Assembly (NCBI GenBank): GCA_002118135.1
Contig: BDIU01000090.1
Location: forward strand, 171,465 to 235,464
From: Trebouxia sp. TZW2008
Taxonomy: Eukaryota > Chlorophyta > Trebouxiophyceae > Trebouxiales > Trebouxiaceae
Length of the DNA: 64,000 nucleotides
Direction of reading: 5' to 3'
Shown in pieces: positions 9,032-62,800 of the stretch; the stretch's first letter is position 1, and each line of letters begins with the position of its first letter. Position numbers and translations under genes: made by a program. The notes beneath the pieces were generated by a model. The model saw nothing but the letters and a program-made list of their open reading frames with translations. It made no database searches and was not told the origin of the DNA.

Positions 9032-12000
9032 ATGGGCATCCCTGAGCGTCAGCTATATATCGGTGGGGGCTGGACCAAGCCATTGAAACAACAGACTTTC
9101 GACGTGTACTCACCATCGGCTGGAAGCAAGATTGGCACCATACCTGCTGCAACTGCCGAAGACGTGGACAAGGCCATCACCGCAGCTCACAAAGCTTTCA
9201 AGTCTGGGTCATGGAGCAAAAAATCTGGAGGTCACAGGGCGAATTATCTCCGCGCGATCGCGGACAAGGTGCTGTACGATCTCGCTTCATATATATATGC
9301 CTTGTACACAAAGGACTGTTCTCGACACTGGTTGTGTTTGCCAGCCCCGCGCTCGGACGGCAGTCGTACTGCTTACAAGCGTGCTGACTGCACAAACCCC
9401 GACATTGAGGTGCACTAGTTGCTGACAGGCACAGTATCTGCTTTCAGGTCAAGGAGAAGAAGACCGAACTGGCCAGGTTGGAGACAACTGACATGGGAAA
9501 GCCAATTCAAGAGGCTGAATGGGACATGGTCAGCGTTCTGCAACAGTTTCCTTTGCATGATCACATGCATTTGTGCCTCGATTGATGACCTGCTGAGCAT
9601 GCATAGCACACAGCTTGCTGCTTGCATCACATGAGTGATCAAACGAGCTGCGCCTACCAAATGACAAACTCCATGACAACATTGCAACATTTGAGCTGAA
9701 AATGCGCTCTGAATTATTGTTGCACTATACTCATGCAATCAGGCTGACTGGCCGCCTATCGCTGCCAAGTGCAGCAACCAGGTGACATTCAGCACACTGA
9801 GAGGCGTTCTGCATGCTTGATGCTTCATCCTGTTTTGCATAAACCTGTCTCATCTTGCATTCAACCCTCAAGTCCTTGTAAAACACCTGGGTTCAGCAAG
9901 TCATCTGCAAGTGAATGATGAGTGTTCTTTTGCAGGATGATGTAGCAGGCTGCTTTGAGTACTATGCAGAACTTGCCGAGAAGCTGGACACAAGGCAGGG
10001 CCAGCCGCTGCAGTTGCCAATGGAGGAGTTCAAGGGAGCTATCAGGCGTGAGCCCTTGGGAGTCGTTGCCCTGATCACGCCATGGAACTACCCCATGCTC
10101 ATGGCTGCTGTGAGTGTCAAATGCCATTCTCAGCAGCCCACCCTGACCAAACTCCCCAATGCAGCAGCACTAAGCTGTCAAGCCCCGGGGTGCTTCTACT
10201 CACAGAGGCTCTCGTCATAATGTTTGAAGGCGTAGAATTTCTGGTGTTTATTTGAGCCTTTTGGATGTCATACCTCTGCAGCTGAAGGATCACATGCATG
10301 CCATGAAGCCATTGCCATTGCATCCATCAGCAAGCATTGCTTTGGGCGCCTCAATCCAAGGCAACTTCAGCACTGACATCTGGGAACAAGTGCGTTTCAC
10401 CCTTCTGCGCACATGTCACGTGACCATGCTGACCTTGCATTTGTGGTGGTCCTCTTGGCAGGTGTTCCCCTTGTTGGCTGAAAGTAGCTGCATTGCCTGT
10501 ACCAGCCATTCACATTGTCCCTTTGTTCATGTCTATGCATGGTGCAGAGCAGGCATTAGGTTTGGTCAGTACCATGAGGGGCTTTGCTTTGCTGCAGCTG
10601 TACAAGCAGACAGGCTGCCGGCAATGATGCTTGTGCACACATTGACGTGTGTACACACTGACCAACCCATACCTGTCAATGCAGTGGAAGGTGGCGCCGG
10701 CCCTAGGCGCCGGCAACTGCTGCATCCTGAACCCCTCAGAGCTGCGCAGCCACAACTGCTGTTCATGCACAAGCTCGACATGATGCGAGCTTACTGTAGC
10801 GGCTGCAGCAACAGTGAGCGTGTGTAAGCTATGATCATCATGAGCTCTTTTTGGTTGCAGTGGAAGGTGGCGCCTGCCCTAGCTGCCGGCAACTGCTGCA
10901 TCCTGAAGCCTTCAGAGCTGTGCAGCCTGACCTGCCTGGAGCTGGCAGCCATTGGCCATGAGGTTGGCCTGCCTGCCGGCGTCTTCAATGTCATCACTGG
11001 TACTGGTGTCGATGCTGGTGCGCCCCTCAGGTGTGTTGCCGCCCCACTCACACTTGCTGACCAACAGGCATGAAGTGATGAAAATTGCTTGTGAGGACCT
11101 CATCGCTCTGGCAGCTGTTGCCAATAAGGCAAGCCAGGTCAGACCCTTGGCTAGACCAGGTGGCCTTCACTCACCTTGTGCCCAATGGTGGAAATTTCCA
11201 GTGAACACGCTGCTAGCAATGCCATCCTTACCATTGCAGAGCTGCTAAGCATCTGTAGCTGTTGAATTGCAGTTCAGACCCTCGGCTTGCCAAGGTGGCA
11301 TTCACTGGCAGCGTAATCAGCGGCAGGAAGGTGAATGCCTGTGCTGCTAGCAACGGCATCCCCACCACTATGGAGCTGGGCGGAAAGTCAGCCCTGCTGG
11401 TTTTTGATGACGCTGATGTTGAGAAGGCTGTGGAGTGGTGCATGGTCAGTTACACACCCACTTGCTCATTTGTTCCATGACCCACTGGCTTGCTCGGTTG
11501 GCTTAAGATAGCAAGGTCTGTCACATGCAGTCGCTGAGCGGGCGCTGGCCAATACAGTCAGTCAACTGGCAGCTGTGTAAGCTTGACATGTCTTTTGTTG
11601 CTGAGTCCAAAAGGCAGTCTACGAGATTTGCCAACTGATGGACTGACTGCTGAACTGATTGATCCACTGATTATGTGAATGATGATTGGTTTACTTTTGG
11701 AGGGTTTGTCCAGTTTGGCATGTTCTGGACCAACGGCAGCAGCTCCATCCCAAAGCTGCTGGTACAAGAGGGCATCGTACACGACTTTGATAAGCAGCTC
11801 AACGCAGCACACATCTTCACATGTGCTGACTGAGCAGGTTGAATGTGTGCAGTTTGGGGTGTTCTGGACCAACGGCCAGATTTGCAGCTCCACCTCACGC
11901 TTGCTAGTGCAAGCAGGCTTCATCCAAGTCTTCTGTGGAACACAGCTCAAGGATGCAGACATGGCCACATGCACTACTGAAGGATGCTGACTTACATCCT

Positions 12001-14730: not shown

Positions 14731-17700
14731 CTAGCTACTGGCCCCTGCAGGGCTGCTTCCTCTTGCTGATGACTGCTGCTGCTGCTGCTGCTCTAGTTGC
14801 TGCTGCTGCTGTTCTATCTGCTGCTTTTGCAGATTGCTCTGCTGAAGCGCTGTTTCTGCTGCTGCTGGCTGTGACAAGTGCTTGACTGAGCTACCTTGCA
14901 GCTGAAGGGTCAGGGAGTTGCCCATCACTGCTAAAGAGCTCAAGCCCATCAAAGCACCTGCACTAATTCAGACTGTGTTACTTGACTTGAACCAATTATG
15001 ATGCATGGGACATTGCAAGGTTGAGTAAGCACCAATCATGCATCCGCCTATGCGCATGAGCTGTTACATTGAAATTATCTTGCATGCATCAAGAAGAACG
15101 CGCATAAGTGTGGACAAATTCAGATCAGTCTCAGCATATTGATATGACTATTCTGTGTTCATGAAGTCAACCTTTCGCAACAGCATCATTGATAACTCAA
15201 CCAGGGCAGCAAGAGTTGCACCTGAGATGGAGGGGGTGAGGGCTAGGCCCATGGAGGGTAGCAGGGCCCCTGCAGCCAGGGGGATGCCCACCAGGTTGTA
15301 GCCAAAGGCCCACCACAGGTTCTGCCGGATCTTGTTGAAGGTGGCGTGGCTCAGCTGAATGGCGTCCAGCACTTGTGGTATCTGCATGCATGTTGAATCA
15401 GCGAATCAGTGTGTGACAAACCTTGACACCGCAGCACTGTACCCTTGCGAGCTGGGGTGTGCCCATAACACCTATGTGTCACCGACGTGTCTGTTGCGGA
15501 GCAAAATTGTAAGGTGAGAGAAGAGTTGACAGATTAGGATACTGCAAACAAACAATTATAGTGACAGCTTCTGAGGCAGCGTTCACCCAGCCAACAAACT
15601 CTTGTCCGGGCAAAAACATCTGTTGCAATGAGAGCAGCAACCCACTTGATCGACTTGATCGCCTAGCAGGACAATGTTGGCCACTTCTGAAGCAGCATCA
15701 ACACCACCAGCCATTGCCCACATTGGTTTGAGCCAGGGCAGCAGCGTCATTCACAATAAGAGTTCCTCAATGGAAAGGATGACTTGCCTTGTCCCCTAGC
15801 AGCACACTGTTGGCCACTTCTGAAGCAGCATCAACACCAGCCATGGCAATGCCTGTATTGACTTGAGCAAAGACAGCAGTGTCACTCACATTGAGGGTTT
15901 GTCAATGGAAAGAATGACTTGCCTTGTCCCCTAGCAACACGCTGTTGGCCACTTCTGAAGCAGCATCAACACCGCCAGCCATAGCAATGACCACATTGGC
16001 TTGAGCCAGGGCAGCAGCGCCGTTAGGTCACACAAACAACAGTCGCATCATGACCAGATTGCACCACAGCACTTGAGTGCCGACAACTTGTGAGGCAGCA
16101 ATCATCCCGCCCACTGCCCTGACCCCTAAATATGGCATAGCAACTGCAAACCATGCCATCTTTCCAAATAACAAAGTATCTGCTGACAACGGCGACTTGC
16201 CTTGTCGCCTAGCAGGACAATGTTGGCCACTTCTGAAGCAGCATCAACACCACCAGCCATAGCAATGCCCACATTGGCTTGAGCCAGGGCAGCAGCATCA
16301 TTGACCCCATCCCCTACCATAGCCACCTTGCGCCCCCCCTGCTGCAGCTGCTCTATCAGCTGCGCCTTGCCGGCAGGCTTCACACCTGAGTACACCTTGC
16401 TGCCATGTATGCCCACAGCTGCGGCAACTGAGCTAGCGGACGCTGCCTGGTCCCCTGCACATGTCAGAAGTCACTTCAGCGCCACTGCACAGCAATCGCA
16501 AGCATTCACTGTGTGCCTGCTGCTGAGACTGAATACAGATGAGGACAACTTGCGCCCCCCTTGCTGAAGCTGCTCTATTGGCTGTGCATTGCCTGAGGAC
16601 ACACTTTGCTGCCATGTATGCCCACAGCTGCGGCAACTGAGCTGGCAGATGCTGCCTGATCCCCTGCACATGTTAAGACTTGACCAATATTGCAACATGG
16701 CATTATGTTTACAAAGTACCATTACAAAGCAGTTGCAATCGTTCATCATTTGTCTTGCTGCTGTACATGGATGCAGCTGCGGCCACTGAGCTTGCAGACG
16801 CTGCCTCATCCCCGGCACATGTTGACATTTGACTGAGCATGAATGCAAAGCAGTGGCACCCTTGATGCTTTGAATTGCCACAGGTGCAGCCACTGAAATG
16901 GCTGATGCTGCCAGATCCCATGCACTCATAAGGGTTTCAGCACTCACTCTAAGCAGCTGCGCCCTTGCTATGCTGTTGTATATCCGCAATGCGAGCAGGC
17001 AACCAGGCCTTCAGAGTGATCCTTGGCATGAAGCCATTTCTTGTTTATACGGCATGATGGGTTTCCAGAAAACAGTTCTCACCTGACAGCAGAATGGTGT
17101 CAATCCCTTGCTGTTGCAAACCCCTGATGGTAGCAGCGGCGTCTGGCCTCAACCTATCTCTGATCTCAAAGCTGCCAGCCAGCTTGCCGTCTACCCCTAT
17201 GTAGACAGTCATCATGCCACTGTCTACCACTTCATGTCTTCCGCTCACTGACGTCTCCTCACTGCCCCTTTGAACAGGGCTGCTGCCTGTTGATGCCCCT
17301 CCACTGCCCTGCTGACTGCTATCTGCCCTGATACTGATGCTGCTGCCATTCCCATGACTGATGCTTATGTCATGAGCCTTAGGGTCAGACGCATCAGCAT
17401 CAGCATCGTGACTACTGTATTGCCTGGCATCATTCCTGCTATGAATGCTGCTGCCGTTGCTGCCATGCTTACTGCTGCTGCTAGGGGACTGATTTGGGGG
17501 TTGTGAGAGGGGGGTGGGGGGGTTGCTGGGGGCGTGAGCTTGGCTGTGTTTGCGCACCCAACTTAGGTTGCCCACAGCCACTGTGTGGCCTTGCACCTGG
17601 CCGCAAACGCCACTGCCTGGCTCTTGCCTGAAGGTGCCGTCTTGCACGTCCAGCTGTAGCTCACCTATAGGAGCAGCCCAACATTTCAACTGCTAGCAAG

Positions 17701-20700
17701 GTACAGCATGCAGTTTGGCCGCTTGCACCAAATATGCCATCAGCATCTGTCAATAGCATGCAGCAGGAGTTGAGGAACAGGGCTAACACCTTGCCTGTAT
17801 ATCACGACTTGATGACTCACCTGAGCCATCACCAAACAATGGCATGAGCAACAGGGTGATAACTTTGGTTGCACATCAAGTTGAGAACCCAGCTGAGCTG
17901 TCACAGCCTGGACAATGGCTCAAGCACTAGCGCTCTGGACCACAACCTGTGCATAGTTTTCACAAACAAGCTCAGCCATCAGCAACTTGTGCTATGCCAT
18001 TGAGCACTGACCTGAGCCATTGGCAGCTTGGAAGATGGCTTGAGCAACAGGGTGGGTAGTGCAGCGATCCACAGCTGCAGCATAGGCCAGCAGGTGGGCT
18101 GCTGAGAGGTGGCCGCCTGGATAATGGCTTGAGCAACAGGGTTATGATTACATGTGCACAATGACTGAAACACTGACCTGAGCCATCAGCAGCTTGGACA
18201 ATGGCTTGAGCAACAGGGTGGGTAGTGCAGCGCTCCACAGCTGCAGCATAGGCCAGCAGGTGGGCTGCTGGAAGGTGGCCGCCTGGTGCTGGCAGCACTT
18301 GCTGCAAACAAGGCTTTCCTTGGGTGAGGGTGCCTGTCTTGTCGAATACCACAGTATTCACCAGTGATGCTGCCTCTAAGACATCGCCGCCCCTGATCAA
18401 TAGGCCCCTGCATCGAGTCACAAAAAGGTCTTTTCGGTCTGTATGTAATCTGGAACTGTGCCAGCTGCATCTGCTGTGCTTGTGTCAGTGTACCCGTCTT
18501 GTCAAACACCATAGTATCGACCTGAGATGCTGCTTGTTACACGTCCCCGCCCCTGATCAACAGGCCCCTGCAGCATGATGTTGAAACAGGGGCTGTTTTC
18601 AATGTGTGCATTGGAGGGAGGAGGTGATGAGGAGTGCATTGCATTGGCAGACTTGAGCTCAAGTGCCTGAGATGTAGCTTCCAGCTACGGGCATACAGTC
18701 TCTGGAGTTGACTTGCAATCAAGCAAATCAACATCAAACCAGCAGCCACAACAGCTGACCTGTTCTCATATGGGCTCTGAGGCCAAATTCAAACTTCACT
18801 TCAGATGGGCAGGAGAAAAAGCTCAAGGTACAAAAACTGGGATAGGAAAGTCCAAGGTGCTGTGCAACAAATCTCCAGAGCGTCAACATAGCACAACGAG
18901 AATGAAAGGGCGCAAAAACCAAGGGCAGTGGCAAGCGTGTGAACACCTGCGGGCTCCTGAAGAAGTTCCAACAAGGACTGCAGTTGGGGCAGCCAGGCCC
19001 AGGGCGCAGGGGCAGGCCACCACCAGCACATTGCACGCCAACTGCAGGCTCAGCAACAGCGGCCCTGCTGCTCCACCCACCGCTCCCCCTCCATACTTGC
19101 TCATCACCTGTTGCAAAGCACTCTGGTCACTCACAAATCTGCTGTCCCGCCGTACATCATGCAGGTTTCCACCAGCACATTGCAGGCCAGCTGCAGGCCC
19201 TGCAGCGGCGGCCCTGCTGCTCCACCCATCGCTCCCCCTTCACACTTGCTCATCACCTGTTGCAAAGCACTCTGGTCAGTCACAAATCTGCTGTCCTGCC
19301 GTACACCATGCAGGTCTCCACCAGCACACATTGCACGCCAGCTGCAGGCTCAGCAGCAATTGCCCCGCCCACTGCCCCTCCTCCATACCTGCTCATCACC
19401 TTGCAGCGCCTAAAAGAGGTCATGTAGAGTCATTGGCCTGGGACCATAGACCTACATGATATTTTGCCAGATGCACAGGACAGGTGACTGGGTGAAGAAG
19501 AGCAACCTGGGTGCAAGCAATGTTAGTTATATAGTTGGTGTAGGTTAGCACATGATCAAAGTGGTTGGAGACGGTTGATTGCTTCTGCACGTACCCAGTT
19601 GGGCCTGCTGAGCCTGCCTAGCCGACGTTTACAATGAATGATTGAATGAATGGAATGTAGGTCAAGAGCAACTTGGGCACAGATAAGTTGGGTGGGGAAG
19701 AGCAATCCAGCCACAGATAATCACAGCCAAGAAAAGCCAGCTGGATTCAAGTGATGGTAACAAAAAAGAGCACTTCAGTTGGAGCACATGAGGTGGAGAA
19801 GAGCAGGACTGGTTGCTTTGAAACCTGGGTGAAAAGCAGTTGATACCTGAGTCAAAAGACACATGTGAAATAGAGTAACAGCATACCTGAGGGAACACTC
19901 GGGTGCCCACAGTTGCCCAGAAGGCAAAAGTCGCCGCTGACACGCCCATGACAGCATATGCAAACTTGCCAGCCACTGCATCTGCCAGGCGCTGCACTGG
20001 GGCTGTTCTAGCCTGGGCTGTTTCCACCAGCCTCAGGATGTCAGCTATGGCAGTGGCATTGCCGCTACGGTGTGCTCGCACCTGCACAATCAGCAGCCTC
20101 AAATCTTTGCCTTGACAGCCTGCATGCTTGTGATGTATGTAGCAAATTTGCCAGCCACAGCATCTTGCACGCGCTGCACTGGTGCCGTTTTGGACTGGGT
20201 TGAATCAGTCACTGGGACAAACTCCGCAGCAGTCATTTGTCACACATTTGATAGTACACTTCAGGCAGATAGCAGACCAAGCCAAAATAGGGCTTGACAT
20301 GACATCAACATAGGGTTAATAGGCAAGGGATATAAGCGTAAGTTTGCCATCACAGTTGACAGTTCCAGCTGTGACTGTTGCATGCTGTGCTTTGCTGACA
20401 GGCATGGGCTTACCAGTCAGCGCTGACTCATCCACACTGCTGCTGTCAGACGTTACAACTCCATATACAGGAATGCAATGCCTTGAGCAAGGGACAACAG
20501 CAACTTACCGTAATTTTGCCATCACAGTTGACAGTTCCTGCTGTGACTGTTTCGTGTTGTGCTTTGCTGACAGGCATGGGCTCGCCAGTCAATGCTGACT
20601 CATCCACACTGCTGCAGCCAGACACCACAACACCATCCACAGGAATGCGATCTCCTGGGAAAAGTACCAGCAGGTCACCTGGCGCCACATTTTCGGAGGG

Positions 20701-23700: not shown

Positions 23701-23763
23701 TGCCGCTGCTGCCGCTGCTGCTGCTGCTGCTGCCGCTGCCGCTGCAGCTGCCGCTGCTGCTGA

Positions 23764-28099: not shown

Positions 28100-31000
28100 T
28101 CAGTCACTCCAGGCATCTTCATCATTCTTGCCAGTTGTCTCCTCAGCCTCAGCTACAGGCGCAGGAGGTGCCCATACAATGATGTTGCAGTCGTTTCCAC
28201 CACTATACAGCTCCTGCTGATAGCTGTTGTAGCAGCAGCAGTTGACAGAGTCCAGATGGCCTCGCAAGGTCCCAAGAGACTGGCCAGTCAGGCGGTGTAG
28301 GCATTGAATGATGCTGCCAGAAGGGTGATAGACAATGTTTTGATCACCAGCGACAGCCATCTGGCGTGCCTGCAAGACATGAGTTACACTCAATGCTTGT
28401 GATGATTACACATGCTAGCACAAGTAATGAGTGCATGCAGCTCAAGGTATATCTTGCCAGGCCAGCTACGTTCAGGTGCCTGATTGCTGCAACTTTTACC
28501 TCAACTTGTCTGTGCAACCTGATGCACTTTTGCTTCGAATCGTCTGTTGACAAGGCCAGGCATGAAGTGTCTTGTGTTGTCTGCAACAAAGGTTGAAGGC
28601 TGCACACTGCATGCAGTTTGTACGCACATGCACACCTCTCCAGTTACTTCAGTCAGTGATCAGAGGCCCTCTGAGAGTCTAAGGGTGTGGATTACAAACT
28701 GGATATGGGATATTCCCTATCAGACCAGGATTGTATGCAGAAATATGCTTGCGCTACTGATGTCTACCTTCATTGAGCTGTTGAATGTCTGTTGGTAATT
28801 GACTAGCAGGTGGTAGTTGTGCTGGGCATCCCACAGACGCAGCCTGTTGTCAGTGCCAGCAGTAAGCCAATGGAGGCCGTCTGGAGTGGGCAGCACGCCT
28901 GTCACCCGCCCATCATGCGCAACTGCTGATGACTCCTTTCTGGCACCAGCACTTCTGGCTCTTTTCCTGGCACAGGACACAAATTGAACAATTGCTGCCT
29001 TCAAATGACTGCCAGATGAGCATTCTGTCAAGTGGGCAGCACGCTCACCATGGGTCTTTAAATCCCACACTTCTCACGTCTTTCCATTTTCCCAACATAC
29101 AGAAGTGTTGTCTGAACGCAAGTGCCAGACAATTCGCTTGTTGATTAATGGCAGTTCTTGCGCTGGCCATCCCACAAATGCAACCTGTTGTCAGTGTTAG
29201 CTGTCAGCCAATAGAATGTCTGGATTGTGCAGGACACCTGTCACATGCCCATTGTGGGCTACTGCTGTTGACTCTAATCTGGTCCCTTTCCCCATGCAAA
29301 ATGTATCTTGAGAGGAAGTACTGCCCTTATGACTCCAAAGAGCCTGCACTCTGAGGTAAAAAGCAAGATGCGACACATTCAGCTCTCTGGGTTGAAGACA
29401 CACTTTGTGACCGCCAGGCTACAAGCCAGAAGCTGGAACAAAATAAAATCATGTCAGATCAATGGCAGAACTTGTGACCAGCCCTTGATATTGTACAAGT
29501 GCAGACTGTACACATGAACTCTTGCATATACTGTCACAGGAACGCTTGCCAGAACACATTGTCATTTGGACAACACCAAGGGCCTGTTGCCAGATGCATC
29601 TTGTGATCTTATGATTCTGTGTAAGCACCAGGGCAAAACGGTTGTCTGGTTGATTGACAGCTTTCCGATATACAGAGACCTCAAAGGCATCTGGCGGACA
29701 GCAGGAATGTTTTGCCATCAATGCTGCAATGTTCTTCACACTGCAATCATGCAATTGTGCTTCCCATGCTGCTCGAAGGAGGCAAAGGCCAGCCACACAC
29801 AGACAAGGACGCATCTCACACCTCTAGTGCTGGTGTTCAAAATGACAGGACAAGTTCCGAGAAGACGCTGATTGCAAGCATGCAGCAAATGCATCACTTC
29901 ATGCTGAAGTCAGTAAGTGACCTGCTTCCTGCTGACTCAGGTCTGGCAGGTTTTGGCTTCTGGGTGACGTGCTCATCAAACAGGCGTAGACAGTTGTAGG
30001 TCCTGATGTCCCACATCCTGACCTGCAGAAGCATGTCATAGCTTGAGAAACATCCTCTGTCTGATCTACAGAACATGTCATAGCTTGACAATTGCTGATT
30101 GTCCTGACCTGCAGAACACATCATACCTTGAGAAGTGCTGTCTGTCATGCATCATGCTGCAGGCCATTGAAACAGGGTGGCACATAACAAGCGCATGCAG
30201 TTGTAAGTCCTGATGTCCAACATCCTGCCCTGCAGCACAAGCTATTGTGTCTGTTATTCATCATGCCGCAGGCTAGTGTAACAGGGCAGCACATAACAAG
30301 CGTGGGAAGTTGTAGGTTTTGATATCCCACATCCTGACCTGCAGGACAAATTGGCTGATCATTGGGCATTGCTCTCTGTGGTTCATCATGCTGCAGGCCA
30401 GCATGGCACATAACAAGACTAGGCAGTTGTAAGTCCTGGTGTCCCACATCTTGACCTACAGGACAAGTCACAGCTCAAGAATTGCTGTCTGTTATGCATC
30501 ATGCTGCAGGCTCGTGAAACAAGGTGGCAACTAACAGGCATAAGCAACTGTAGGTCCCGATGTCCCACATCCTGACCTGCAGGACAAGCCCTAGCTTGAG
30601 CATTGCTGCCGTTCGTGCATCACGCACCAATCCCAAATGCTGAGCTGCAGCACCAGCTATACCTTGAGCATTGCTGCCTGTTGAGCATTGCGCTGCAGCC
30701 TTATGCAACAGGGTGGCACACACCCCAGTGGTGACAAACGCCACTGCTTTCAATACCTTTAGCGGCAGGATATGTGATGAGCATGTGATAAGCAAGTTTC
30801 CATTGCAGACATTACACCTGATCATCAAAGGTCCCAGTCACCGAGCGGTACTCAGAGTCAGTGCCTATGCAGGCCATGTAGCAAACGGCACATGTAGTAG
30901 TCTCAGCAAGCCTCTTAGTCTATCAGCTAACAAGTTTACCTGACCATCACAGCCTCCAGTCACTAAATGGAACTCAGATTCAAGGGACCAGTGAACAGCC

Positions 31001-34893: not shown

Positions 34894-34917
34894 CAGAAGC
34901 ATTAGCTGTCTGTACTG

Positions 34918-38500: not shown

Positions 38501-38643
38501 GTGTGCCAAATCCCCCTGGCTACCGCCTGCCAGTGTCCTCTGCGCAGAGTTGGCCATTCCCAACTGTGACTGACACAGGCTTGACCTTGCTAGCTACAGC
38601 TGTCAATGCAAGCAGTACACCCCCAACCAGCACAGCTGGTTGA
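35515..38643 (+). CDS. Metallo-beta-lactamase-fold hydrolase with signal peptide
   Basis: Starts MGLISTRRLVWLFVALQISS, a clear signal peptide, so the protein probably enters the secretory pathway. Exons: 35515-35606 or so; RLIALGTGTPSVYKEQ (about 35640-35693); VSTSYLVQTGDGQNFLFDAG (35799-35915); VFLSHLHSDHITDLAPLYAI (about 36065-36217) with the zinc motif HxHxDH; FLGWDQVSRNHVSQFPANYT (about 36358-36491); VWSNPAFHYDTPGP (about 36872-36959); GDTVPLDTFVNFAGGSDVVI (about 37291-37412); NHTSQTQVGQVFAALNPGPR and IATHLSVNEYS with a further His ligand (about 37926-38134); last exon from about 38451. N-glycosylation sequons are numerous (ANYT, VTNQT, NNIT, NHT). The closest family I know is the arylsulfatase/RNase Z-like MBL group that includes GntH-type proteins; substrate unknown. 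Confidence 0.82.
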
Positions 38644-38850
38644 TACAGGCTTGACTCCACAGACGCGAGCAGCCAGTGCCAGCAAGATATACACTCCCTA
38701 TCAACACAGCTGGCTGATTTAGGATGTGGTCAGAACAGCTGGGTTTGCCAGTGTCTTCTGCACAGAGTCGCCATTGCACACTGTGATTGAGGCATTGACA
38801 AGGGCTAGCTGATTGAGGTGGCAGTCACAACGGCTGGCTGATGCAGGAGG
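38641..38850 (+). pseudogene. Ghosts of the metallo-hydrolase terminal exon
   Basis: Unit 1 (38641-38713) repeats the last 70 coding bases from GACACAGGCTTGACC to CACAGCTGG. Unit 2 (38735-38840) repeats an earlier start point (TGCCAGTGTCTTCTGCACAG against the real TGCCAGTGTCCTCTGCGCAG at about 38529). Both lie after the stop codon. Confidence 0.8.
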
Positions 38851-48697: not shown

Positions 48698-51600
48698 CTA
48701 CAAGTACACATCCTGCTTTGCCGCCTTCTTTTCTGTTGTGCTGGCTTTGCCATTTGTATCTTTGCTAGACTTTCCAGACTTTTCAGACTTTCCAGATTTG
48801 CCTTTTTTTAGAACCTCCACTACAGCCTCCTGCTCATTTAGCTCAGCTACTTGAAGAGGGATGCTGCCATCTTCATTTTTCAGGTCTGTTTTGGCGTCAC
48901 TGCACATCAACAGCAGCCATCATCAACAACGATCCACCTTCTGCTCTATGCTTTGCATGCGGTAAGTGATAGCTGCATCTGCTGCTCTGGGCTTCAAATG
49001 ACGTGACATCAATAGATGCAACTTTTGCTCTGTGCTAACAGGACAGCATGACGCATTTCAAAACGCCCTGTGCAGCTGCTATCTGCAAGACTTGACAAGT
49101 CAAGCACTTCCTAGTTGAGGTGCAGTCAGCTATCTTGTACATCAGACATACATTCCATGCTGCAAATGGGACAATCAATAGACCAGGGGCATGGGGCAGG
49201 CGTTACCTGTCAAGCAGCAACTGAATGGCTTCTGCCTGCCCATACCCTGCTGCGTAGTGCAGAGGGGTGTTCTTGTCACCATCCCTTGCATCCACATCGG
49301 CTCCAGCCTTGATGAGCTCCTCCGCACAGGCAAGCTCCCCATACCCACAGGCAAAGTGCAAGGCAGTGCGGCCCTCGGCATCCTTCTCATCCTTGTCAGC
49401 GCCGCCCTCCAACAGTTGCTTCAGTACGTCCACATCTCCTGCAAGAACAGCACAAAAGGTGACTTGACTGCGCTGTCAGCACCAAGCTGTTGTGCATAGG
49501 CAAAGCTCCCCATACCCACAAGCAAAGTGCAAGGCAGTGCAGCCCTCAGCAACTGCTTCAGTGCATCCACATCTCCTGCAGGAGAAGCACAACATGTCAC
49601 TGAACTGGGCTTGCAGCATCGCCCTGTCATGCACAGGCAAGCTCCGCATACCCACAAGCAAGGTTTAAGGCAGTGCAGCCCTTGGCATCCTTGTCAGCGC
49701 CGCCCTCCAGCAACTGCTTTAGTGCGTCCACGTCTCCTGCAAGAAAAGCACAACAGGAGACTTGCTTTGCACTGTCAGCATCGCACTGTAGTGCACAGGC
49801 AAACTCCCCATACCCACAAACAAGGTGTAAGGCAGTGCAGCCCTCAGCGTCCTTCTCATCCTTGTCAGCGCCGCCCTCCAGCAACTGCTTTAGTGCGCCC
49901 ACATCTCCTGCAAGAGAAGCACAACAGGGAACTTGAACTGCACTGTCAACATCACTGTGTAGAGCATAGGCAAGCTCTCCATACCAACAAGCAAAGTGTA
50001 AGGCAGTGCTGCCTTCAGCGTCCTTCTCATCCTTAGCAACACCACCCTCCAGCAACTGCAACTAGTGCATCCACATCTCCTGCATAAGCACAGCAGGAAG
50101 CGTTACTTCATTTGCTTGCAGAGCAATTTCGAATGACTTCGTCCATCTGGTTCAACGCATCCACATCTTGCGCATGACAAGCACAGCATAAAGTACTTTT
50201 CTCTGTCAGCACCACGCCTTAGTGACTGCCTTAGTGCATCTTCACCTCCTGCACAAGAAGCACAACAAGAAGGATGAATTTACTGTCAACACCACCATCC
50301 AGCGAGTGCTTCAGGGCATGCACATCACTTGCATGAGGCCACAGCAGGGATTGTGACTTTTTTTTGCCCTCCACGCACATGCACTGATAACTTTGCACAC
50401 AATGTCAGTCACGATGACAGGGTATGTAGATGATGATAACACTCGTTGAGACAGAGTTGAAACAACAACACACGTTGTTGTTGTCACATCACAAGCCTCA
50501 AGCAGAGGCTGCGCCCAAAGTCAAAGCATAGAATGCAAACCATGTTTGAGCAAGAGCCTCTCTGGCTCAGATATACATGCATGGATGCGCGCATGTTGAT
50601 GCATCAGCACTGCCGATGAAATGTGAGATCAGTAGAAGTCGTTGTGCATCAAACATGAGCTGCACTGCACATGTAGGAAGCTTTTTGTCTGCGCTTGACA
50701 GGCTTTGCTGGCGGCATGAGACATTATGTTGCAGTGCGTCATCATCTGTGACATCCAATATGCAGTACATAGTGTGCATTACGCGAGCAATTTAGGACAT
50801 GCACCAACAAGATGCAGTGTGAAGTGTCAAATGCCTGATAAATCGGCGCCAGTGAGCAATATGCAAAATCTAAACATTGATCACTAAAAAACAGAGTGTA
50901 GTCATGCATTGTTGTGCTGGCTACTGGCTCACCTGCACTGGCAGCAGCATGCACATCCGTTTCATCCTCTTCTGCTTCGCCGTCACCAGCACCCTCTGCA
51001 GCTGCTTGCATGGCTGCTGGGTCAAATGTGTCACCCATCACAGCACTCAGCTTGCTGAGTACTTGTGGATCTGACCAGTACCTGCACACGACATGCGCTG
51101 ATCCTGCTTGCTGTTGCCATAGCCAAGTTGAGCCAGCAATCATTGCATTTGCTGAGTGGAACGGCGCATGCATGCTGAGCATTATGCCGCTTATACAGCA
51201 GTGCATGTATGTCTGTACCTATGAGGAGACATAGCCTCCAAACTGACAGAGAATTGCAGCTGCAGTAGCAACGTGCAACAGCAGCAGCAATAAGCAACAA
51301 CAGCAGCAGACATGCTTGTGCAGGTATGAGCTATTAGCCAAGCCAGAGTGACGGTAAAGCTCACTTTGTCATGGCTGCTGGGCCACCTTCCTCTATCTCC
51401 TTCATAATGTCTGCAAGTTCTGGATCCTTCTTCAACTCCTCCAGCTTCTCCTCAATGTTTGTTCGGTAGCTGGGGTTGTTCATGCTTTGCATGAAGTTTG
51501 CCATCTGGGGATCTTGCTGTTGCAACACAAGACCAAGTCAGTTACAGCGTGCATTTCGTGTTACACACATGCAACGGTGCGGCCAAATACCATCATCTGA

Positions 51601-52608: not shown

Positions 52609-54305
52609 ATGGTTGCATCTGCTCTCAGAACAGCTAACAGCTTCTTGCAATCTGAATCGGCCAGGCAACGGATCATCCCCTGTTCTAAGTCTCAGCGTGC
52701 ACTCCGAGGTAGTCTGCGCTGTCAGCTTGTGACGTGTGGGGTGTCTCTGTCCAGCAAGATTACACTCCCCATGCCCCACGTGCAAAGTCCTTTGGAGCTG
52801 GGGGCAGCAGGTCTCCCGCCTCCATCAACGGCTGACATCAAGTACGACAGAGCAGTTTCTTTACCACAGCCTTGTCACACACTATATACTACTAATGTCC
52901 AGCTTCTCTGGAGCGCAGGATCAGTGATCAAGTACGCATATGCAACTGGCAAGACCCACAGCAGCAGGGAGCAGCAGCATCAGAGTTGCAGGCCTTTTGT
53001 GCTGCCAGTATCCAAAACTTGGGCCTGCAGTCCTTCACACCTCTGCTGTTGAGAGGTGCTGTAAGTGGCTGGCGAGCTGTTGACAAATGGAGCTTGGATT
53101 ACTTAGTTGATCAATATGGCGAGCAGAGGTAGCACATAACAACTTCTGTGTCTTTCTCAGGACATTGCCCTATTGTTGTCACCATTGTCAATAGGCTGAG
53201 AGTACAAACCTGTCATGGATGATGCCAGCTTATTGTTTTCAAGTCAAGTGTGAAACAAAGACAAAAGGAAGTCAACACTTGTGCAGAGTGCAGGTTCGTG
53301 CAGCACCCTCCATGAACTTTGCATATGTGGAGCCGCGACTCATGCCTATGTACCTGAAGTTCAAGAAGCCACAGCAAGCACCTAGCATGGTTGCAGCAAT
53401 GACCTTGAGGGACTTCGCCATGAGGGCTCAACAAGACAGCAATCAAAGCCCGCTGTTCTATCAGAATGGAGAGTTTTACTACATGCAGTCGCCAGTCACG
53501 CGTGACATGAGGAGCTCAGGCGACTTAGATTTTGACCAGGAACCATTTTCAGCTGTCCTTGCACCAGGTACAGTAGTAATGCACAGTGATAATGCACAAT
53601 TTGCGAATGCACATAGCAAGTGACTTGCTGTTTTGATTGCTGCATGTCTGGGCAAGGCTTGCAACTACATGCCACAGGAGCACAGACGTAGGCAGCATTC
53701 ACATGTCAGATTGATATGGACCACTTGTTGCTTGCACACGTTTGCATCATGATTGCTGTGTGAACAATTGCCCGCTGCTTGCTTGTTGCGCAGACGGAAG
53801 TGCACCATTCGCCGCTTGCATGGAAACGCATCATGATTGTTGTATGAACACGTGCTTATTGCTAGCTTGTTGTGCAGATCAGAACGGGGAAAGAAAGATC
53901 ATCCCAGCAGCAGCAGCCAGGCTGTGGATCAGCCCACAAGGCGCAGTGTCGCCTTTGCATTTTGACTGTCATGATTCCTTCCTGATTCAAGTGAGGGGAA
54001 CCAAGAGGATGCTGCTCTGGAGCCCAGATCAGCTGCACAGGATATACCCTTACAAAAATTGGCATATACTGAGGAGACGAGGCAAAGTGGATCCAATCAA
54101 GCCCAATCTCAAGAAATTCCCTAAATTTGCTGAGGCTCATGCAGTAGAGGTTGTGCTGGAACCTGGAGATGTTCTGTTCTTTCCTGGTTACTGGGCGCAC
54201 TATACAGAAAGTTGTAGCTTTTCTGTATCAATTACCTGCAGATTTGGGCTTGCTGAAGAATTGTATAAGAGGAGATCTTGGTTCAGTCTGCTGTTGAGGC
54301 CATAA
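52609..54305 (+). CDS. JmjC/cupin-8 Fe(II)/2-oxoglutarate oxygenase
   Basis: ATG 52609 begins MVASALRTANSFLQSESARQ. Conserved blocks: FTPLLLRGAVSGWRAVDKWS and LDYLVDQYGEQR (exon about 53027-53130); APSMNFAYVEPRLMPMYLKF and MTLRDFAMRAQQ (53294-53564); then RLWISPQGAVSPLHFDCHDS, FLIQVRGTKRMLLWSPDQLH and VLEPGDVLFFPGYWAHYTES (last exon to 54305). The iron triad is visible as H-x-D in HFDCHD with the distal His in YWAHYTES; K in RGTKRMLL could bind 2-oxoglutarate. The architecture resembles small JMJD/cupin-8 hydroxylases (JMJD5/FIH type) rather than histone demethylases with extra domains. Substrate unknown. The intron before the last exon holds a duplicated acceptor. Confidence 0.82.
53740..53878 (+). 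repeat. Tandem copy of a splice acceptor in the JmjC gene
   Basis: The segment GCATCATGATTG...GCTTGTTG.GCAGA occurs at about 53745-53794 and again at about 53828-53878, the second directly before the real last exon. The first copy leads into GGAAGTGCACC instead. Unit about 84 bases; a multiple of three, so the frame remains open across it. Confidence 0.8.
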
Positions 54306-54541: not shown

Positions 54542-57500
54542 TCACTGCTGCTGTGGCTGGACCAGTGAGGTATTACCAGACACATCAACCGGTGACTGCT
54601 CCTGCAAATTGGTCTTATCTTCCTGCAAACCATGCTGCTTCTTATGCTGCAGCTGTGAGACAAGGCTCTTTTCCAGACCCTGGATCCTGGTCTTCATGCC
54701 AGACAAAATGCCTTCAATGGTTTGTATCTTATCCTCCTTGAAGCTCAGTGGCAACTCTGGCTGCTGCACTGCTGCTGGCTGAGCCTTGCTTCTCCGCTTA
54801 GCTGCAATTGAGCGAGTCATCTGATGGAAATGAGGCGTTGTCTGTAAGCCTTCGTCTGCCTCAGTTAGTGGATGCTCCAGAGCAAAGTGCAAGGCTGCAA
54901 CTGCCGACGCAGAATCTGTGCCCTGTCGCCCACTGTAGATTGTGAGATGCTCAGGACTCAGACCAAGGGCCACTGCCAGCCTGACTGTGGGATCTGTGAT
55001 GTGGCTGTAATCTTCTGCAAGCAACACAAGCGTGTCAACAATTTGCTGCATGCGGCAACTTTCACAGGTCCTTGGGTTTGCAATGACAACGCAACACACT
55101 GAGCTCCTTGCAGAATCAGAATGCATGCCTCCTGATAATGTGACTTACTGACTACGCGCAGATGCCAGCACTGAAGGGCCGGCACACTGTTACACAACAT
55201 GACAAAACATGATGTCTGGCAGAAGCTGCCGCCGCAGTGTCCAAGTCTGTGGTGCTGCTTTGAGCGCTTCAAGTAGATATAGCATCATGCAGCATGTTAT
55301 CCTCTCACCTGTTCTCTCAGTTGATTACTCACTTGGTGATCTGAAAGCAGATTCCCAAGACCGCACTGATGAGCAAGCTTTAGGAAATTGCAGAGATCAC
55401 ATATTGTTGCAACATTTCACCATTTGTGCCGCAAACAAATTGTTGGTGTCATGATGCAGCTGAGTACACTTCAAAGATTCATGTTACAGCAACTTCTCTT
55501 TGTAAGGACACTCAACATAAGGACGTCCTTGATGTAAGGACAATGCAATTGGGAACCAAGCACTGGAGTCTGACTGCAGTGGCCCCTCTGAGTAAGGACA
55601 ACTCGATGTAAGGACAATTTTCTCAGGAAGCAAAGCAATCGTCACAAAGAGAAGTCACTGCACAAATGGCTGTCCGCTTACCTGTTTCACTGCAGCCAGC
55701 ATCAGCCTCTGCACTGCCTTGCTCAGATGCTGCTGTCTGCACCTCAACCACATTAGCTTGCACTGCTATCGCATCAGCCTGTTGCTGCAGTGGCTTCACA
55801 TCAGCTAGCCCATCTGCAGGACTCTCAGGATCTGGACTATCTGCCAACATAGTACTCCACTGCTTGATGTCATCGTGCAATTTGTCAAAAGCCTCTGCAA
55901 TCTTGTCGTGCGAGAATTCAAAAGCTAGAGCTCCAGGAATGACGTCCATGCCTTGCAAGGGCAAGTCTGCAACTTGAGGAAGCTCAGGGGGAAGGAACTG
56001 GGCTATGGAGGGGGTCTGGGTGGGCTCAGCATGTAATTGGATTACTAGCAATGGGGCTGTACCAGGTTGCAAGGTGCTAGCTGCAGCATTGCGACCAGCT
56101 TGCCTGTCAATAATGATTTTGCTGCCTACACAGCTTGCCTGCAGACAGGCCACCAAATAGACCTGTTGATGAGCTGCATGTGCGGCTCATGAGTTGGGGT
56201 ATGTTGAAGACAAGCAGGCCTACCAGAAACTATCTTGCTGTGGCATCAGGCAGACATGGCGATTGTCAGTAATCACTTCTGATTCCAGTGCAGGCCAGGT
56301 GCAATCAGTCTTCATGCTGTGTGACAGGTACATGTCAGGACAAACTGCTTGGGCTTGAGATAGGAGAGGACATTACGCTAAAGTCTGTCCATAAGCATAC
56401 CTGATATAAGGACCAGGCAGTTGGCCACCAACCACTGCATTTTGACAGAAGTTATCCAAAACGACAGTCCAGAGTAAGGATTGTTTTATTGGTGACCAAT
56501 ACAGTTGTAATAAAGAGAATTTACTGGACCCACATTGCTGATGGTCTTGGTAAAAGCTGCAGAGCTGACAGCGACTGGGTTGTTGAGCAGCATCACATGC
56601 TGTAAGCTGGACAAGCCAAGCAATGGCTGAATGCTGCTGACGGCTGCAATCTTGTTGCTGGTCAGGTCCATCATCTGCATTGACATGAAAATAATCTGGC
56701 TTGATGGCAGGATAGGCCCAAAACCACCAAGTCCCAAGTTTCTCACCATGCTTTACACGCATATGTGCAGCGCAACGCACAAGATCCTTTGCTTTGGCTG
56801 ATGGATGGAGCAATGCTTCTGCCTTTCATGATCGATCAACCTTGCCAGGCAGGCAGCATGATACACGCATCCTATTGACAGCTCAGATTGCCTATCGTCA
56901 CCCGCAGTGCAGGGAGGCATTGGCCTTGTATCCAATTTGCCCTTTGATTGTGGTCTATGCAGTGTGCATGACATTAGCCATGCAATATTGCAGGCAGCAA
57001 CTCTCAGACTGCCCACCTGCAGTTGCCTGAAGGGCTTGCTGCCAGCACTTGCAGCCAAGCCAGGGACCTTAGTGATGTGATTGCTGGCCAGATACAGCTC
57101 AGCCAGGCTTGGCAGGGTGCTGAGCTGCTGCAGGCAAGCTTCCTGAAGACTGCAGCGCCCTGCCCTTAGCACCCTCAGCAATGGAAAGCTGCCAGCAGGG
57201 GCGTGCCACCTTGCAAGCTGGTTGCCTGCAGATACACAAATGCTTGTTGATGATTGTTGATGGTAGCAAGAGGCGAACAGGCTTGGCAGGGTGCTGAGCT
57301 GTTGCAGGCAAGCTTCCTGAAGACTACAGCACCCTGCCCTTAGCACTTGTAGCAGTCAAAAGCTGCCAGCAGGGGCAATCCACCTTGCAAGGTGGTTACC
57401 TGAAAGTCCAACAAGCAAGTAATCAGCTTGCTGTTCTGGCGTTGTGAGTCTCATTGCTTGTCTGAAGATACTGGGTGGAGACATGGCAAACAGGTGGGGC

Positions 57501-59895: not shown

Positions 59896-62800
59896 ATGTC
59901 CGCAACGAATACGCAATCCGAATGCATACATGATATAGGTCTGCACCGTTTTTGCAAGTTGTTATGGCAGCTGTTGGTGCTAGTGAGGCCTTTTCAAGCT
60001 GTTTTGCTTGTGCTTCTGTCTATTTTGGAGGCTTTGCTGGTAGCTCAAGGTACCTGTAGCAAGACAGCGATGCATATCACCAGGCATGCATGACACTGAC
60101 ACTGTTTGTGTCACAAGTGGGCACAAGATTTTCTCTTGACTGCAGTTGGCAGGGTCGCTGGACAGTACTACCTGATCATTGTAGACCGGCAGGCTTCAGC
60201 TTTTGTCAGGACTACATTGACCTCATTGGCATTGTACATCTGCAACACTGCTGTCAAGTCCACAAGTCAGTGGCTGTCAGAGCTGCTATCATACAGGTTT
60301 CTTACTATCATGTTTTCATGTTGCAGTGACACTTGATACAGTGACATTCTCGACAACACAACAATTGAAAGTGGGAACCAAGCACTGCATTCTGACTGCA
60401 ACGCTACATGTGAGTAGTGACAACCTGATGTAGTTGCTAAATGTCTTGGTGGCAAATGCAGTTGCTACATGTAGGGCTCTGTACAGCCAGACAGCAACTG
60501 ATTGCTTTCACTACCAGATAGCTTGGCTTGTTACGGCTGATGGTCAACATGCTGATTGCAGATGGCGAGGAAAGCTGACACGTGTCTTGCACGAACGCTA
60601 TTGCAACCAGGAGTCGTTTTACTGGCTCCCTGAAGGGTGTGACAATCCAGATCAGCGCATTGCCCAGGATACCAGCATTTGCTGCAACTGTCTTGGCTCC
60701 ATTGCCAAGGTTGTGGCTGCAGCACCGTTCCAGGTGCAATGCAACCCTAACACAACCCAACATTTGATTGCTTCTGTACGTACCTAGATGGGCCTGCTGA
60801 GCCTGCCTAGCCCACGTTTACAATGAATGAATGAATGAATGAATGAATGAATGCAACCCTGGTCCCTGTGCAGCGTGCATGGTATAAGGTGCCGCAACTT
60901 TGCCATCACAGTGTTCCAACAGTGTCCATCAGCTAACAAGCTGCAACTGAGCTTGGTTCTGAAACCTGTTCCGACTGTGTTGCTGAAGCTGAACAGACGT
61001 ATGCTGTGTCTCAGGTGATGTACTATACATACTGGACTTGGCAGATCACCTCAGGCTATATCGTCTTGGCTGTCTACGCCTTCTTTCTGATAAGCTTGGT
61101 GCTGCAAAGGTCAGTAGCCTCTGCAGCTGTTGTGTTGGACAAGACCCTGCTGCGCACATGCTTGTTAGACAGGCTGCTGTGGCAGGCTGACTTCAGCACA
61201 GCTGTGCCATACCTCCGTCTGACCAAGTGACAGCATGTGCTGCAGTTGTATCATACGGCCTGCTGCAAAGATAGTCTTCACACAAGAGCGCAAAGAGGGC
61301 AATTTCAGGTTTGCCCACATGCGTTTGCGCTCTTTGCTGACAGAGATTACTCTGTATGGAGCGGGCGCTGCAGAACAAAGAAATCTTGAACACAATCTTG
61401 AACCTGTATTGAGCACTCAGCTCAGCCTTATCATGTGGCGCTTCCTGCTTACTGCCTGCACCATCGCCTTGGAATATGCTGGAGCGCTGCTCAACTATTC
61501 CTGCCTAGGCCTTGTAGTGTTTACAGGTCAGTCTTGTCAGCTGGCCATATTGCACTGACTTGTGGCTTTGTCGCATTGACTGTTCACTACCTGCACTATT
61601 GCCCTGGAATATGCTGGAGCGTTGCTCAACAACTCCTGCCTGTGTCTTGTGGTGCTTACAGGTCAGTCCTTCTGGTTTCAGCTTGCGCATAGTTGCCGTA
61701 GCACTATTGCATTGGCTGCTCACTGCCTGCATCGCTGCCTTCAAATATGCTGGAGCGCTGCTCAGATACTCCTGCCTAGGCCTTGTATTATTTACAGATA
61801 GTCCTGCTAGCCGCACAGCGTGAGCTCACTTCCACAGCAGCACCTGTCAAAGGCTTGAACTGCATGCCTTGCTGCCTAAGAGCCATCATCTGATTGCACC
61901 CTGCATTCACAGCTACATGGTCAAGCTTGCCATTCTATCAGCTTGCACAGCCATACAGCGCGTTTGTGGAAATAATGTTGCACTCCATGATATGTAGCAT
62001 GACTAACATCACATCTCGCAGCACGATGCAGGCATGACAACAACTCAGGCAGCTGTTTTAGACTACCAAACATTCTGAACAAGCAGTGTAGGTTATTCAA
62101 ATTGTGTTTTGCATCAGTTCACTCCTGTTCCACACATTGCAGACCCAGTCAGGTTTTTGACATTGCGTTCTTGTCAAACAACAATATATGGAATGGTTGC
62201 ATTTGCAGGACCTGGGACACAGACACGTAGCACATGTGGTGGAACATGTAATCATTGTTGTTGTTGCCGTTGTCGTTGTTGTTGTTGTCATTGGTGTTGT
62301 CATCAGTATTATAAACATTATAATTGTGTTTGCAGAGTCAGTATCAACAACGTTACAATTGTGTTCGCAGAGTCAGTATCATCAACATTATAGTTGTGGT
62401 TGCAGAGTCAATGCCGACTGGCATGGACAGCGGGCAGCTAGCCAAGTGGGTTTCCAATGCCAGCTTTGCCACCCTAACTCTCATCTATAGCTTCACCCAG
62501 ATGCTAGACTTGGCCACCCAATTCTCGACTCTGGCTGGTGTCACTGTGCGTGTTGGCCAGCTGCTGCAGGTGAGTCATTGTATTTGTCCAGCAAGGCAGG
62601 TGAGTCACTGTGCGTGTTGGCCAGCTGCTGCAGGTGAGTCATTGTATATGTCCAGCAAGGCAGGTGAGTCAGCATGCGTTTTGACTGAAATTAGCAAAAT
62701 GAATGCGCTGTTGGTACAGGAATTGGAGAAGCTGAACAACAGGAAAAGCCAGCCCTTGCAGAGCTCTGCCATGTTCAGCGCATTTGAATCATTGCATGTG

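What the first reader, a model, noticed from the sequence alone, without database searches (positions are those of the whole stretch)
9032..62700. A rule-governed system of 'ghost exons': tandem partial exon copies anchored at splice sites in most genes
Ten of the fifteen genes (ALDH10, Cu-ATPase, CSA, AhpC/TSA-like, metallo-hydrolase, ADCS, AKR2, JmjC, XRRA1-like, ABCD) carry tandem degenerate copies of exon ends. Copies upstream of an exon hold its 5' part with an acceptor; copies downstream hold its 3' part with a donor. The copy joined to the rest of the exon is the intact one, and copies generally decay with distance. This is what recurrent tandem duplication across exon/intron borders would leave, but so many arrays in 64 kb is far beyond what I know from green algae. 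Consequences could be decoy splice sites, regulated non-productive splicing, or new exons.
Basis: partly seen in the sequence, partly recalled or inferred. Interest (0 to 1): 0.88.

Follow-up and report, generated by a model that had tools for sequence, protein, structure and literature searches.

The report
Tandem-duplicated exon ends littering introns
This green alga's genome is full of short (about 100-200 base) side-by-side DNA duplications that fall without regard to genes; where one crosses the edge of an exon, selection keeps one copy as the real exon and the other decays in the intron as a 'ghost', so the striking pattern is mostly a by-product of duplication and selection rather than a dedicated splicing system.

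Summary
The ghosts are real, and genome-wide. The window holds 62 local direct repeat pairs; 15 of 17 stretches taken blind from other contigs hold at least one. Direct pairs outnumber inverted 214 to 4. Nearest-copy periods cluster at 100-199 bp, 63 of 87. The side rule held in 35 of 35 one-border pairs, plus 8 of 8 in a further 60 kb.

The rule follows from tandem-duplication geometry plus selection for one intact exon. Contiguous tandem pairs show no preference for splice sites: 18 of 34 cross one, 19.6 expected. Pairs of which only part is still recognisable do: block ends within 12 bp of a splice site in 21 of 53, 3.7 expected. So the anchoring mostly arises after duplication, because the parent exon is frozen while introns decay. 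Ghosts drift at about the parent's silent rate (inferred); 37 of 77 have a stop or frameshift.

Left over: 14 exon-bearing gapped pairs at least 85% alike, against 3.9 expected under the best neutral fit; exon-to-ghost gene conversion is my inference. Dedicated splicing regulation is not supported, although ghost acceptor AGs are kept in 40 of 43.

The parts
10680..10759 (+). ghost of the 5' part of ALDH10 exon 10861-11030: TGCAG plus 75 exon bases, 89% identical; parent block 10856-10935, period 176
   Evidence: residual similarity of the intron tail z 4.1
11704..11913 (+). two upstream ghosts (11704-11802, 74%; 11846-11913, 90%) of ALDH10 exon 12078-12278
   Evidence: homology shows the second is extra to the protein
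15654..16160 (-). Cu-ATPase array downstream of exon 16197-16454: ghosts G1 15916-16018 (93%), G2 15781-15879 (86%), G3 15654-15754 (92%) and a faint G0 (16020-16160)
   Evidence: stretch absent from the HMA4 homologue
16546..16833 (-). upstream (acceptor-type) ghosts of Cu-ATPase exon 16197-16454
   Evidence: extra GDQAAS copy relative to HMA4
17770..18142 (-). downstream (donor-type) ghosts of Cu-ATPase exon 18178-18407; 18005-18120 is 94% identical and keeps the donor GTCAGTG
18473..18572 (-). upstream (acceptor-type) ghost of Cu-ATPase exon 18178-18407, 79%
19012..19401 (-). Cu-ATPase tandem array, period 149, about 2.3 copies, overlapping predicted exons 18947-19064 and 19156-19295
20337..20479 (-). 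downstream ghost of Cu-ATPase exon 20509-20757, 87%, period 172; donor GT not kept
29158..29282 (-). ghost of CSA exon 28768-28994, 78%
30102..30720 (-). CSA array of upstream ghosts of exon 29922-30022, period about 109-121
33969..34118 (+). upstream ghost of exon 34266-34410 of the plus-strand AhpC/TSA-like / metallo-hydrolase model (second-pass gene model)
34797..35064 (+). direct pair containing predicted small exon 34844-34887 (second-pass model) and its downstream copy
38528..38790 (+). copy (38746-38790) of an interior piece of predicted exon 38451-38638 (second-pass model), 83%
40289..40611 (-). ADCS upstream ghosts of exon 39676-40228, period about 118-120; the predicted 5' end of that exon may itself include a ghost (pair 40042-40116 / 40160-40233)
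49494..50359 (-). AKR2 (ankyrin) contiguous array of upstream ghosts of exon 49207-49438, period about 170
53744..53878 (+). 51-bp direct pair ending at the predicted acceptor of JmjC exon 53878-53990 (second-pass model)
57278..57402 (-). upstream ghost of XRRA1-like exon 57017-57225, 88%; begins at CAG|G and carries an in-frame stop
61445..61808 (+). ABCD tandem array, period 135, overlapping predicted exon 61527-61661
62540..62683 (+). ABCD fresh tandem duplication (period 64, 98% by TRF) across the donor of exon 62371-62569: two nearly identical donors 64 bp apart
   Evidence: the extra exon predicted at 62634-62663 was dropped

Best explanation
The genome undergoes frequent short local tandem duplications (period mostly 100-200 bp, direct orientation) that fall without regard to gene structure. 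When the duplicated unit spans an acceptor, the downstream copy stays joined to the exon and the upstream copy is left in the intron; when it spans a donor, the reverse. The side rule is therefore forced by geometry plus selection for one intact exon. The parent exon and its splice consensus are then frozen by purifying selection while the ghost and the intron tails drift neutrally, so recognisable similarity shrinks to the exon part plus a few splice-site bases. A minority of ghosts look refreshed from the parent exon by short-tract gene conversion. Shown: local direct duplication, the side rule, random placement of contiguous pairs, near-neutral decay of ghosts. Inferred: the mutational mechanism (staggered-break fill-in or replication slippage) and the conversion step.
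For: Direct against inverted local pairs 214:4. Side rule 35 of 35 and 8 of 8 in a further 60 kb. Contiguous pairs, n=34: exonic 13 (null 17.6), crossing a splice site 18 (19.6), end within 12 bp 3 (2.4). Gapped pairs, n=53: 44 (26.8), 37 (17.9), 21 (3.7), each p 0.001. Further 60 kb: gapped ends 4 of 12 (null 0.8, p 0.009), contiguous 0 of 11 (0.6). Nearest-copy periods 63 of 87 in 100-199 bp; 19 of 23 in 88-186 bp in the further 60 kb. In pairs that belong to arrays the intron tail expected under tandem duplication is recognisable (z 3.8 against 0.9 for a control flank, n=21, p 0.001). Codon-position differences in pairs >=85% alike are 0.100/0.084/0.143, which I read as a ghost rate about equal to the parent's silent rate. 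A neutral simulation with free age mixture and large indels expects 11.1 (near a splice site) and 20.1 (exon-bearing, not near) gapped pairs below 85%, against 12 and 19 observed.
Against: The same fit leaves 14 exon-bearing gapped pairs >=85% alike against 3.9 expected and misses two other classes (contiguous exonic <85%: 9 against 15.5; gapped non-exonic <85%: 7 against 12.8), G2 26.6. In 3 of the 14 (22000, 40042, L017 1196) both copies overlap predicted exons, so parent and ghost are unresolved. Beyond block ends no more flanks than chance showed similarity: 2 of 37 tails and 2 of 49 interior flanks at p<=0.05; the 15 simple exonic pairs show no tail excess (p 0.85). Fresh contiguous pairs are scarce (6 of 87 against about 29-32 under a steady rate), so ages must be humped or fresh copies lost or collapsed in assembly. 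Contiguous and gapped periods differ somewhat (medians 123 and 160, KS p 0.009). Ghost acceptors keep AG more than expected. In the further 60 kb, exon enrichment of gapped pairs was not significant (7 of 12 against 6.2). Conversion has only patchy support: the faint G0 and overdispersed mismatches in 12 of 69 alignments at p<=0.05; contiguous arrays show little homogenisation.
Confidence: 0.66

Rival explanations
1. Exon-limited copying: a process (template switching, or RNA- or cDNA-guided repair) copies exon ends with a few splice-site bases into the neighbouring intron, so the spacer was never duplicated.
For: Sharp block ends, no more similar flanks than chance in simple pairs; in gapped one-border pairs the block runs 0-18 bp past the splice site in 22 of 29; 14 exon-bearing gapped pairs >=85% alike against 3.9 expected under neutral decay.
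Against: Free insertion should place some ghosts on the far side of the exon; none of 43 are. Gapped and contiguous pairs lie in the same 100-200 bp range (though medians are 160 and 123, KS p 0.009), and block length and gap are negatively correlated (rho -0.35, p 0.016). Array pairs do keep a recognisable tail. Splice-consensus bases are part of the copies, which argues against spliced RNA as template.
Confidence: 0.15
2. Ghosts are maintained as decoy splice sites or regulatory (poison) exon pieces.
For: Ghost acceptors keep AG in 40 of 43 (expected 29.7 at the exon-part rate; about 33 by my own rough correction for parent changes); TGCAG identity 0.91 against 0.83 in the exon part (Wilcoxon p 0.0009); ghost sites score near their parents (median 5.9 against 6.8 for acceptors, 4.4 against 5.9 for donors).
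Against: Donors keep GT in only 20 of 31 (expected 22.2). Exon parts differ from the parent at all codon positions; 37 of 77 have a stop or frameshift. Ghosts in an array share ancestry, so counts are not independent; parent TGCAG is itself conserved, which raises expected identity at these bases.
Confidence: 0.08
3. Assembly artefact (collapsed or mis-joined alleles or read errors).
For: Not checkable here; raw reads are not held. Scarcity of near-identical copies could reflect collapse.
Against: Copies show graded divergence from 66 to 98% identity, differences at all codon positions, and occur in 15 of 17 independent stretches. A divergent allele would show third-position-dominated differences.
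Confidence: 0.04
4. Intron gain by duplication of AGGT-bearing exon segments (Rogers/Hellsten type, as described in PMC4974935).
For: The 62540-62683 pair looked like this in the first-pass gene model: donor in copy 1, acceptor at the same place in copy 2.
Against: In the one-border pairs the copied site is the parent's own acceptor or donor with the ghost beside it in the intron. At 62540 the extra 'exon' adds ten residues; I read it as a donor-crossing duplication, a judgement resting on recalled ABCD sequence.
Confidence: 0.05

Closest known systems
Tandem genomic duplication across an intron-exon border, potato RdRp (Ma, Lan and Niu 2016, PMC4974935; abstract and results section read)
   Same: A duplication spans the 3' part of an intron and the 5' part of the next exon, with splice signals inherited by the copies.
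   Different: There one recent event made a spliced new intron, supported by RNA reads and outgroups; here the copies look like decaying remnants, often several per gene, without RNA or outgroup.
Duplications at staggered breaks: natural insertions in rice (Vaughn and Bennetzen 2014; paper not held; seen only as described in the review PMC7407515, passages) and small tandem duplications by Pol alpha-primase fill-in (PMC8355091, passages)
   Same: Short direct tandem, partly tandem or near (within 200 bp) duplications.
   Different: Those are described as mutations at breaks; here the accumulated, ageing products are seen, and the mechanism in this alga is inferred, not tested.
Novel intron positions by tandem duplication or sliding in Drosophila (PMC2891723, abstract read)
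   Same: Duplication of exonic sequence with one copy becoming intronic.
   Different: Those cases are new intron positions; here pre-existing introns are lengthened by ghosts.
Introner-like elements (PMC4457414, search listing and start of abstract only)
   Same: Sequence that carries splice sites spreads in introns.
   Different: Ghosts are local copies of their own exon; the one array used as query had no match elsewhere in the genome.

Membership tests
Tandem genomic duplication spanning splice sites | local copies in direct orientation | tested here: met
   214 direct against 4 inverted pairs within 1 kb, >=45 columns
Tandem genomic duplication spanning splice sites | ghost on the side of the copied border | tested here: met
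   35 of 35, 8 of 8 in a further 60 kb; 9 borderless and 3 two-border pairs not counted
Tandem genomic duplication spanning splice sites | whole unit duplicated, copies adjacent | tested here: inconclusive
   34 of 87 nearest pairs contiguous, 53 gapped; tail similarity found in array pairs (n=21, p 0.001) but not in simple pairs (n=15, p 0.85)
Tandem genomic duplication spanning splice sites | outgroup without the duplication | not testable with these tools
   no relative of this genome is held
   contiguous pairs: 18 of 34 cross a splice site against 19.6 expected, 5 of 11 against 5.2 in a further 60 kb; gapped pairs are enriched, read here as a later effect
Decoy or poison-exon regulation | ghost splice sites conserved beyond neutral decay | tested here: inconclusive
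   acceptors 40 of 43 kept, donors 20 of 31 kept; in the further 60 kb 11 acceptor ghosts (A 1.0, G 0.91 identical) and 6 donor ghosts (G and T 1.0)
Decoy or poison-exon regulation | ghost sites used in transcripts | not testable with these tools
   no RNA data
AGGT-type intron gain | donor in copy 1 and acceptor at the same position in copy 2 | tested here: inconclusive
   62540-62683 fits in the first-pass model but not on reading the protein, partly from recall; other first-pass models with both sites were not followed up one by one
Introner-like element | dispersed near-identical copies in many introns | tested here: not met
   one array (15654-15981) used as query: 2 matches, both at its own locus

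The most novel reading that the evidence does not exclude
Exons act as lasting donors: short-tract gene conversion (or exon-limited copying) repeatedly rewrites decayed ghosts from the conserved exon, with its reach set by where homology ends, at the splice consensus. Introns in this lineage would then carry a self-renewing halo of exon-end copies with live acceptor sites.
Probability: 0.22. Interest if true: 0.72.

Novelty: new variant of a known kind. Interest (0 to 1): 0.46.

Why it matters
About one predicted exon in six here has a detectable ghost (66 of 419), so this genome is a natural laboratory for how the spliceosome tells a true splice site from a duplicated one, for how introns lengthen, and for the size spectrum of spontaneous short tandem duplications. 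It also warns annotators: a self-trained gene finder takes ghosts for exons (48 of 376 predicted exons dropped as ghost-like or under 18 bp). The scarcity of fresh copies and the well-preserved ghosts without intron tails are testable puzzles.

Tried and rejected
Simple tandem duplication with neutral decay at a steady rate, small indels only: rejected. It predicts contiguous high-identity pairs (7% gapped in the >=85% band); observed are 34 of 40 gapped counting all pairs, 15 of 21 counting nearest copies. Adding large indels raises gapping but not exon bias. Only a free age mixture brings most, not all, classes into line.

Intrinsically faster mutation of intron-derived sequence: not supported overall. 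Ghost-to-ghost mismatch is 0.177 in exon-derived and 0.206 in intron-derived columns, although the three longest AKR2 alignments show 0.09-0.13 against 0.22-0.24.

Purifying selection on ghosts as coding exons: rejected by the codon-position pattern and broken frames.

The LHC family search gave places but no DNA.

Corrections found on re-checking: the observed counts typed into searches had one gapped pair <85% in the wrong class (18/8 instead of 19/7); refits with the right counts and the result stands. One search counted 39 of 81 broken ghost exon parts with a crude codon register and with the 13 second-pass exons set to phase 0; the careful recount is 37 of 77. The phase-0 exons also entered the simulations; one search used first-pass models only, which are wrong at about 31.8-39.6 and 52.3-54.5 kb.

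Literature: nine searches; no listed title or abstract start described a genome-wide survey of partial exon copies at splice sites in algae. That does not show there is none.

Full report
WHAT WAS CHECKED. The window is G000:C87:171465-235464 of a 68.5-Mb, 527-contig assembly with no relatives held. A self-comparison gives 62 direct pairs within 1 kb; far or inverted pairs are few. As a control I took 20 stretches from other contigs without looking at content; 17 existed (165 kb). Fifteen of the 17 hold at least one local pair, with 0-25% coverage against 11.4% in the window. The window is ordinary for this genome.

GENE MODELS. No annotation or RNA was available, so I wrote a two-strand gene finder, self-trained on these 229 kb. 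It converged on acceptor TGCAG|G and donor CAG|GTRAGY and predicted 376 exons. I removed 48 that were ghost-like or under 18 bp. Homology confirms parent against ghost in the two genes checked. In ALDH10, reference residues 301-320 align twice. In the Cu-ATPase several predicted exons are extra relative to HMA4, 8q75. The finder missed plus-strand genes at about 32.8-38.6 kb and 53.3-54 kb; a second pass recovered them at low score, and the main test was redone with them.

THE PATTERN IS REAL. In 43 of 162 pairs a block ends within 12 bp on the intron side of a predicted splice site, against a mean of 11.2 and a maximum of 25 in 400 circular shifts; 93 cross a splice site against 64.6 (maximum 90). 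Where one copy is exonic and one kind of border lies in the block, acceptor-type ghosts are always upstream (19) and donor-type always downstream (16), with no exception; 9 pairs without a border and 3 with both were not counted. A further 60 kb, read with the frozen model, gives 8 of 8; it comes from three contigs of which other stretches had been used in training. Orientation is direct in 214 of 218 local pairs. Nearest-copy periods cluster at 100-199 bp, 63 of 87. The fall-off above 200 should be real, since longer units (searched up to 1 kb) are easier to detect; the lower edge is partly a detection limit.

IT IS NOT DUPLICATION TARGETED TO SPLICE SITES. I split the 87 nearest pairs into contiguous (gap <=25 bp, n=34) and gapped (n=53). 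Contiguous pairs ignore gene structure: 13 exonic (null 17.6), 18 crossing a splice site (19.6), 3 ending near one (2.4). Gapped pairs are exon-bound: 44 (26.8), 37 (17.9), 21 (3.7), each p 0.001. For block ends this holds in the window alone (7 of 18 against 1.4) and in the loci alone (14 of 35 against 2.4); crossing in the window alone is borderline (11 against 7.3, p 0.051). In the further 60 kb the end-at-splice-site excess repeats for gapped pairs (4 of 12 against 0.8, p 0.009) and is absent for contiguous ones (0 of 11), but the exon excess does not reach significance (7 of 12 against 6.2). So the duplications fall blindly and the splice-site edge develops afterwards.

WHY AN EDGE DEVELOPS. 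Ghost-parent differences by codon position in pairs >=85% alike are 0.100, 0.084 and 0.143; less similar bands show the same order. I read this as a drifting ghost plus a roughly silent-site excess in the parent. Of 77 ghost exon parts of at least 30 bp with first-pass parents, 37 carry a frameshift (29) or an in-frame stop (12) in the parent's frame. The parent exon and its splice consensus are conserved; both intron tails drift. Around 45 ghost acceptors identity is 0.83 in the exon, 0.91 over TGCAG, and about 0.5-0.7 further into the intron, without allowing gaps. In arrays the tail expected under tandem duplication is recognisable (z 3.8 against 0.9 for a control flank, n=21, p 0.001).

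WHAT THIS DOES NOT EXPLAIN. I simulated random duplication and neutral decay on the gene models. With a steady rate and small indels, pairs >=85% alike should be contiguous (7% gapped); observed are 34 of 40 gapped counting all pairs, 15 of 21 counting nearest copies. Large indels raise gapping without exon bias, and a steady rate predicts about 29-32 fresh contiguous pairs among 87 where 6 are seen. With a free age mixture and 0.04 large indels per substitution the best mixture has ages 0.08-0.25 and reproduces the main exon-bearing classes below 85% (12 and 19 against 11.1 and 20.1). It overpredicts contiguous exonic (15.5 against 9) and gapped non-exonic pairs (12.8 against 7) below 85%, and leaves exon-bearing gapped pairs >=85% in excess, 14 against 3.9 (9 of them ending within 12 bp of a splice site); G2 26.6. 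In 3 of those 14 both copies overlap predicted exons. Flanks of gapped pairs show no more similarity than chance just beyond the block (2 of 37 tails, 2 of 49 interior flanks), and the 15 simple exonic pairs show no tail excess. Either such ghosts were rewritten from the exon after the tails had decayed, or copying was exon-limited. The side rule and the common 100-200 bp range argue for an ancestral tandem duplication, although gapped periods are somewhat longer (median 160 against 123, KS p 0.009). In the Cu-ATPase array of regular period the place nearest the exon holds only a faint copy while three farther ghosts are 86-93% identical, as uneven rewriting would leave. Mismatches are overdispersed in 12 of 69 longer alignments, a modest and non-independent signal. 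Contiguous arrays show little homogenisation, so conversion cannot be frequent. I hold conversion as an inference only.

FUNCTION. Ghost acceptors keep AG in 40 of 43 (expected 29.7 at the exon-part rate; about 33 by my own rough discount for parent changes), donors keep GT in 20 of 31 (expected 22.2). In the further 60 kb, 11 acceptor ghosts have A 1.0 and G 0.91 identical, and 6 donor ghosts keep G and T throughout. Copies in one array are related, so this is weak evidence for maintenance of acceptors and none that is consistent for donors. Whether any ghost site is used needs RNA.

RELATION TO KNOWN THINGS. A duplication across an intron-exon border is documented in a potato gene (PMC4974935, abstract and results read), intronisation after duplication in Drosophila (PMC2891723, abstract), and short tandem or near duplications at breaks in rice (as described in PMC7407515, passages) and mammalian cells (PMC8355091, passages). 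What differs here is density and the ageing record. I file it as a new variant of a known kind.

LIMITS. Self-trained gene models, no transcripts, no relative, 289 kb of 68.5 Mb examined, copies within arrays not independent, simulation parameters of my own choosing, species not identified.

Noticed in passing
window 19529-19651, 23092-23176, 31284-31396, 60764-60845: A dispersed repeat of about 125 bp, same orientation in the four window copies; a 13-kb query returned 41 matches to it (40 at 87-92% identity, one at 78%) from 39 scored of 1018 first-look candidates. Three window copies lie inside predicted introns and do not coincide with their splice sites.
   Followed up: partly
window 16020-16160: A faint copy sits one period from its parent exon, while three farther copies are 86-93% identical to the parent: the nearest ghost looks oldest.
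   Followed up: partly
window and loci L003-L019: Few near-identical contiguous tandem pairs (6 of 87 at >=85%) compared with a steady-rate expectation of about 29-32: an old burst, rapid loss of fresh copies, or collapse in assembly.
   Followed up: partly
ghost acceptors, window and loci L003-L019: The last intron base G of the acceptor is kept in all of 45 ghosts and A in 93%, more than the exon part, whereas donors show no such excess.
   Followed up: partly
G000 places listed (e.g. C222:74998-76418, C412:29742-29918): Several light-harvesting-protein exon matches carry stop codons inside the match, possibly more ghost exons or read-through into introns; the DNA could not be cut out.
   Followed up: no
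window 63939-64000 and 23687-23792: Long trinucleotide runs (ACA type; GCT type, read as poly-alanine in a weak gene model).
   Followed up: no
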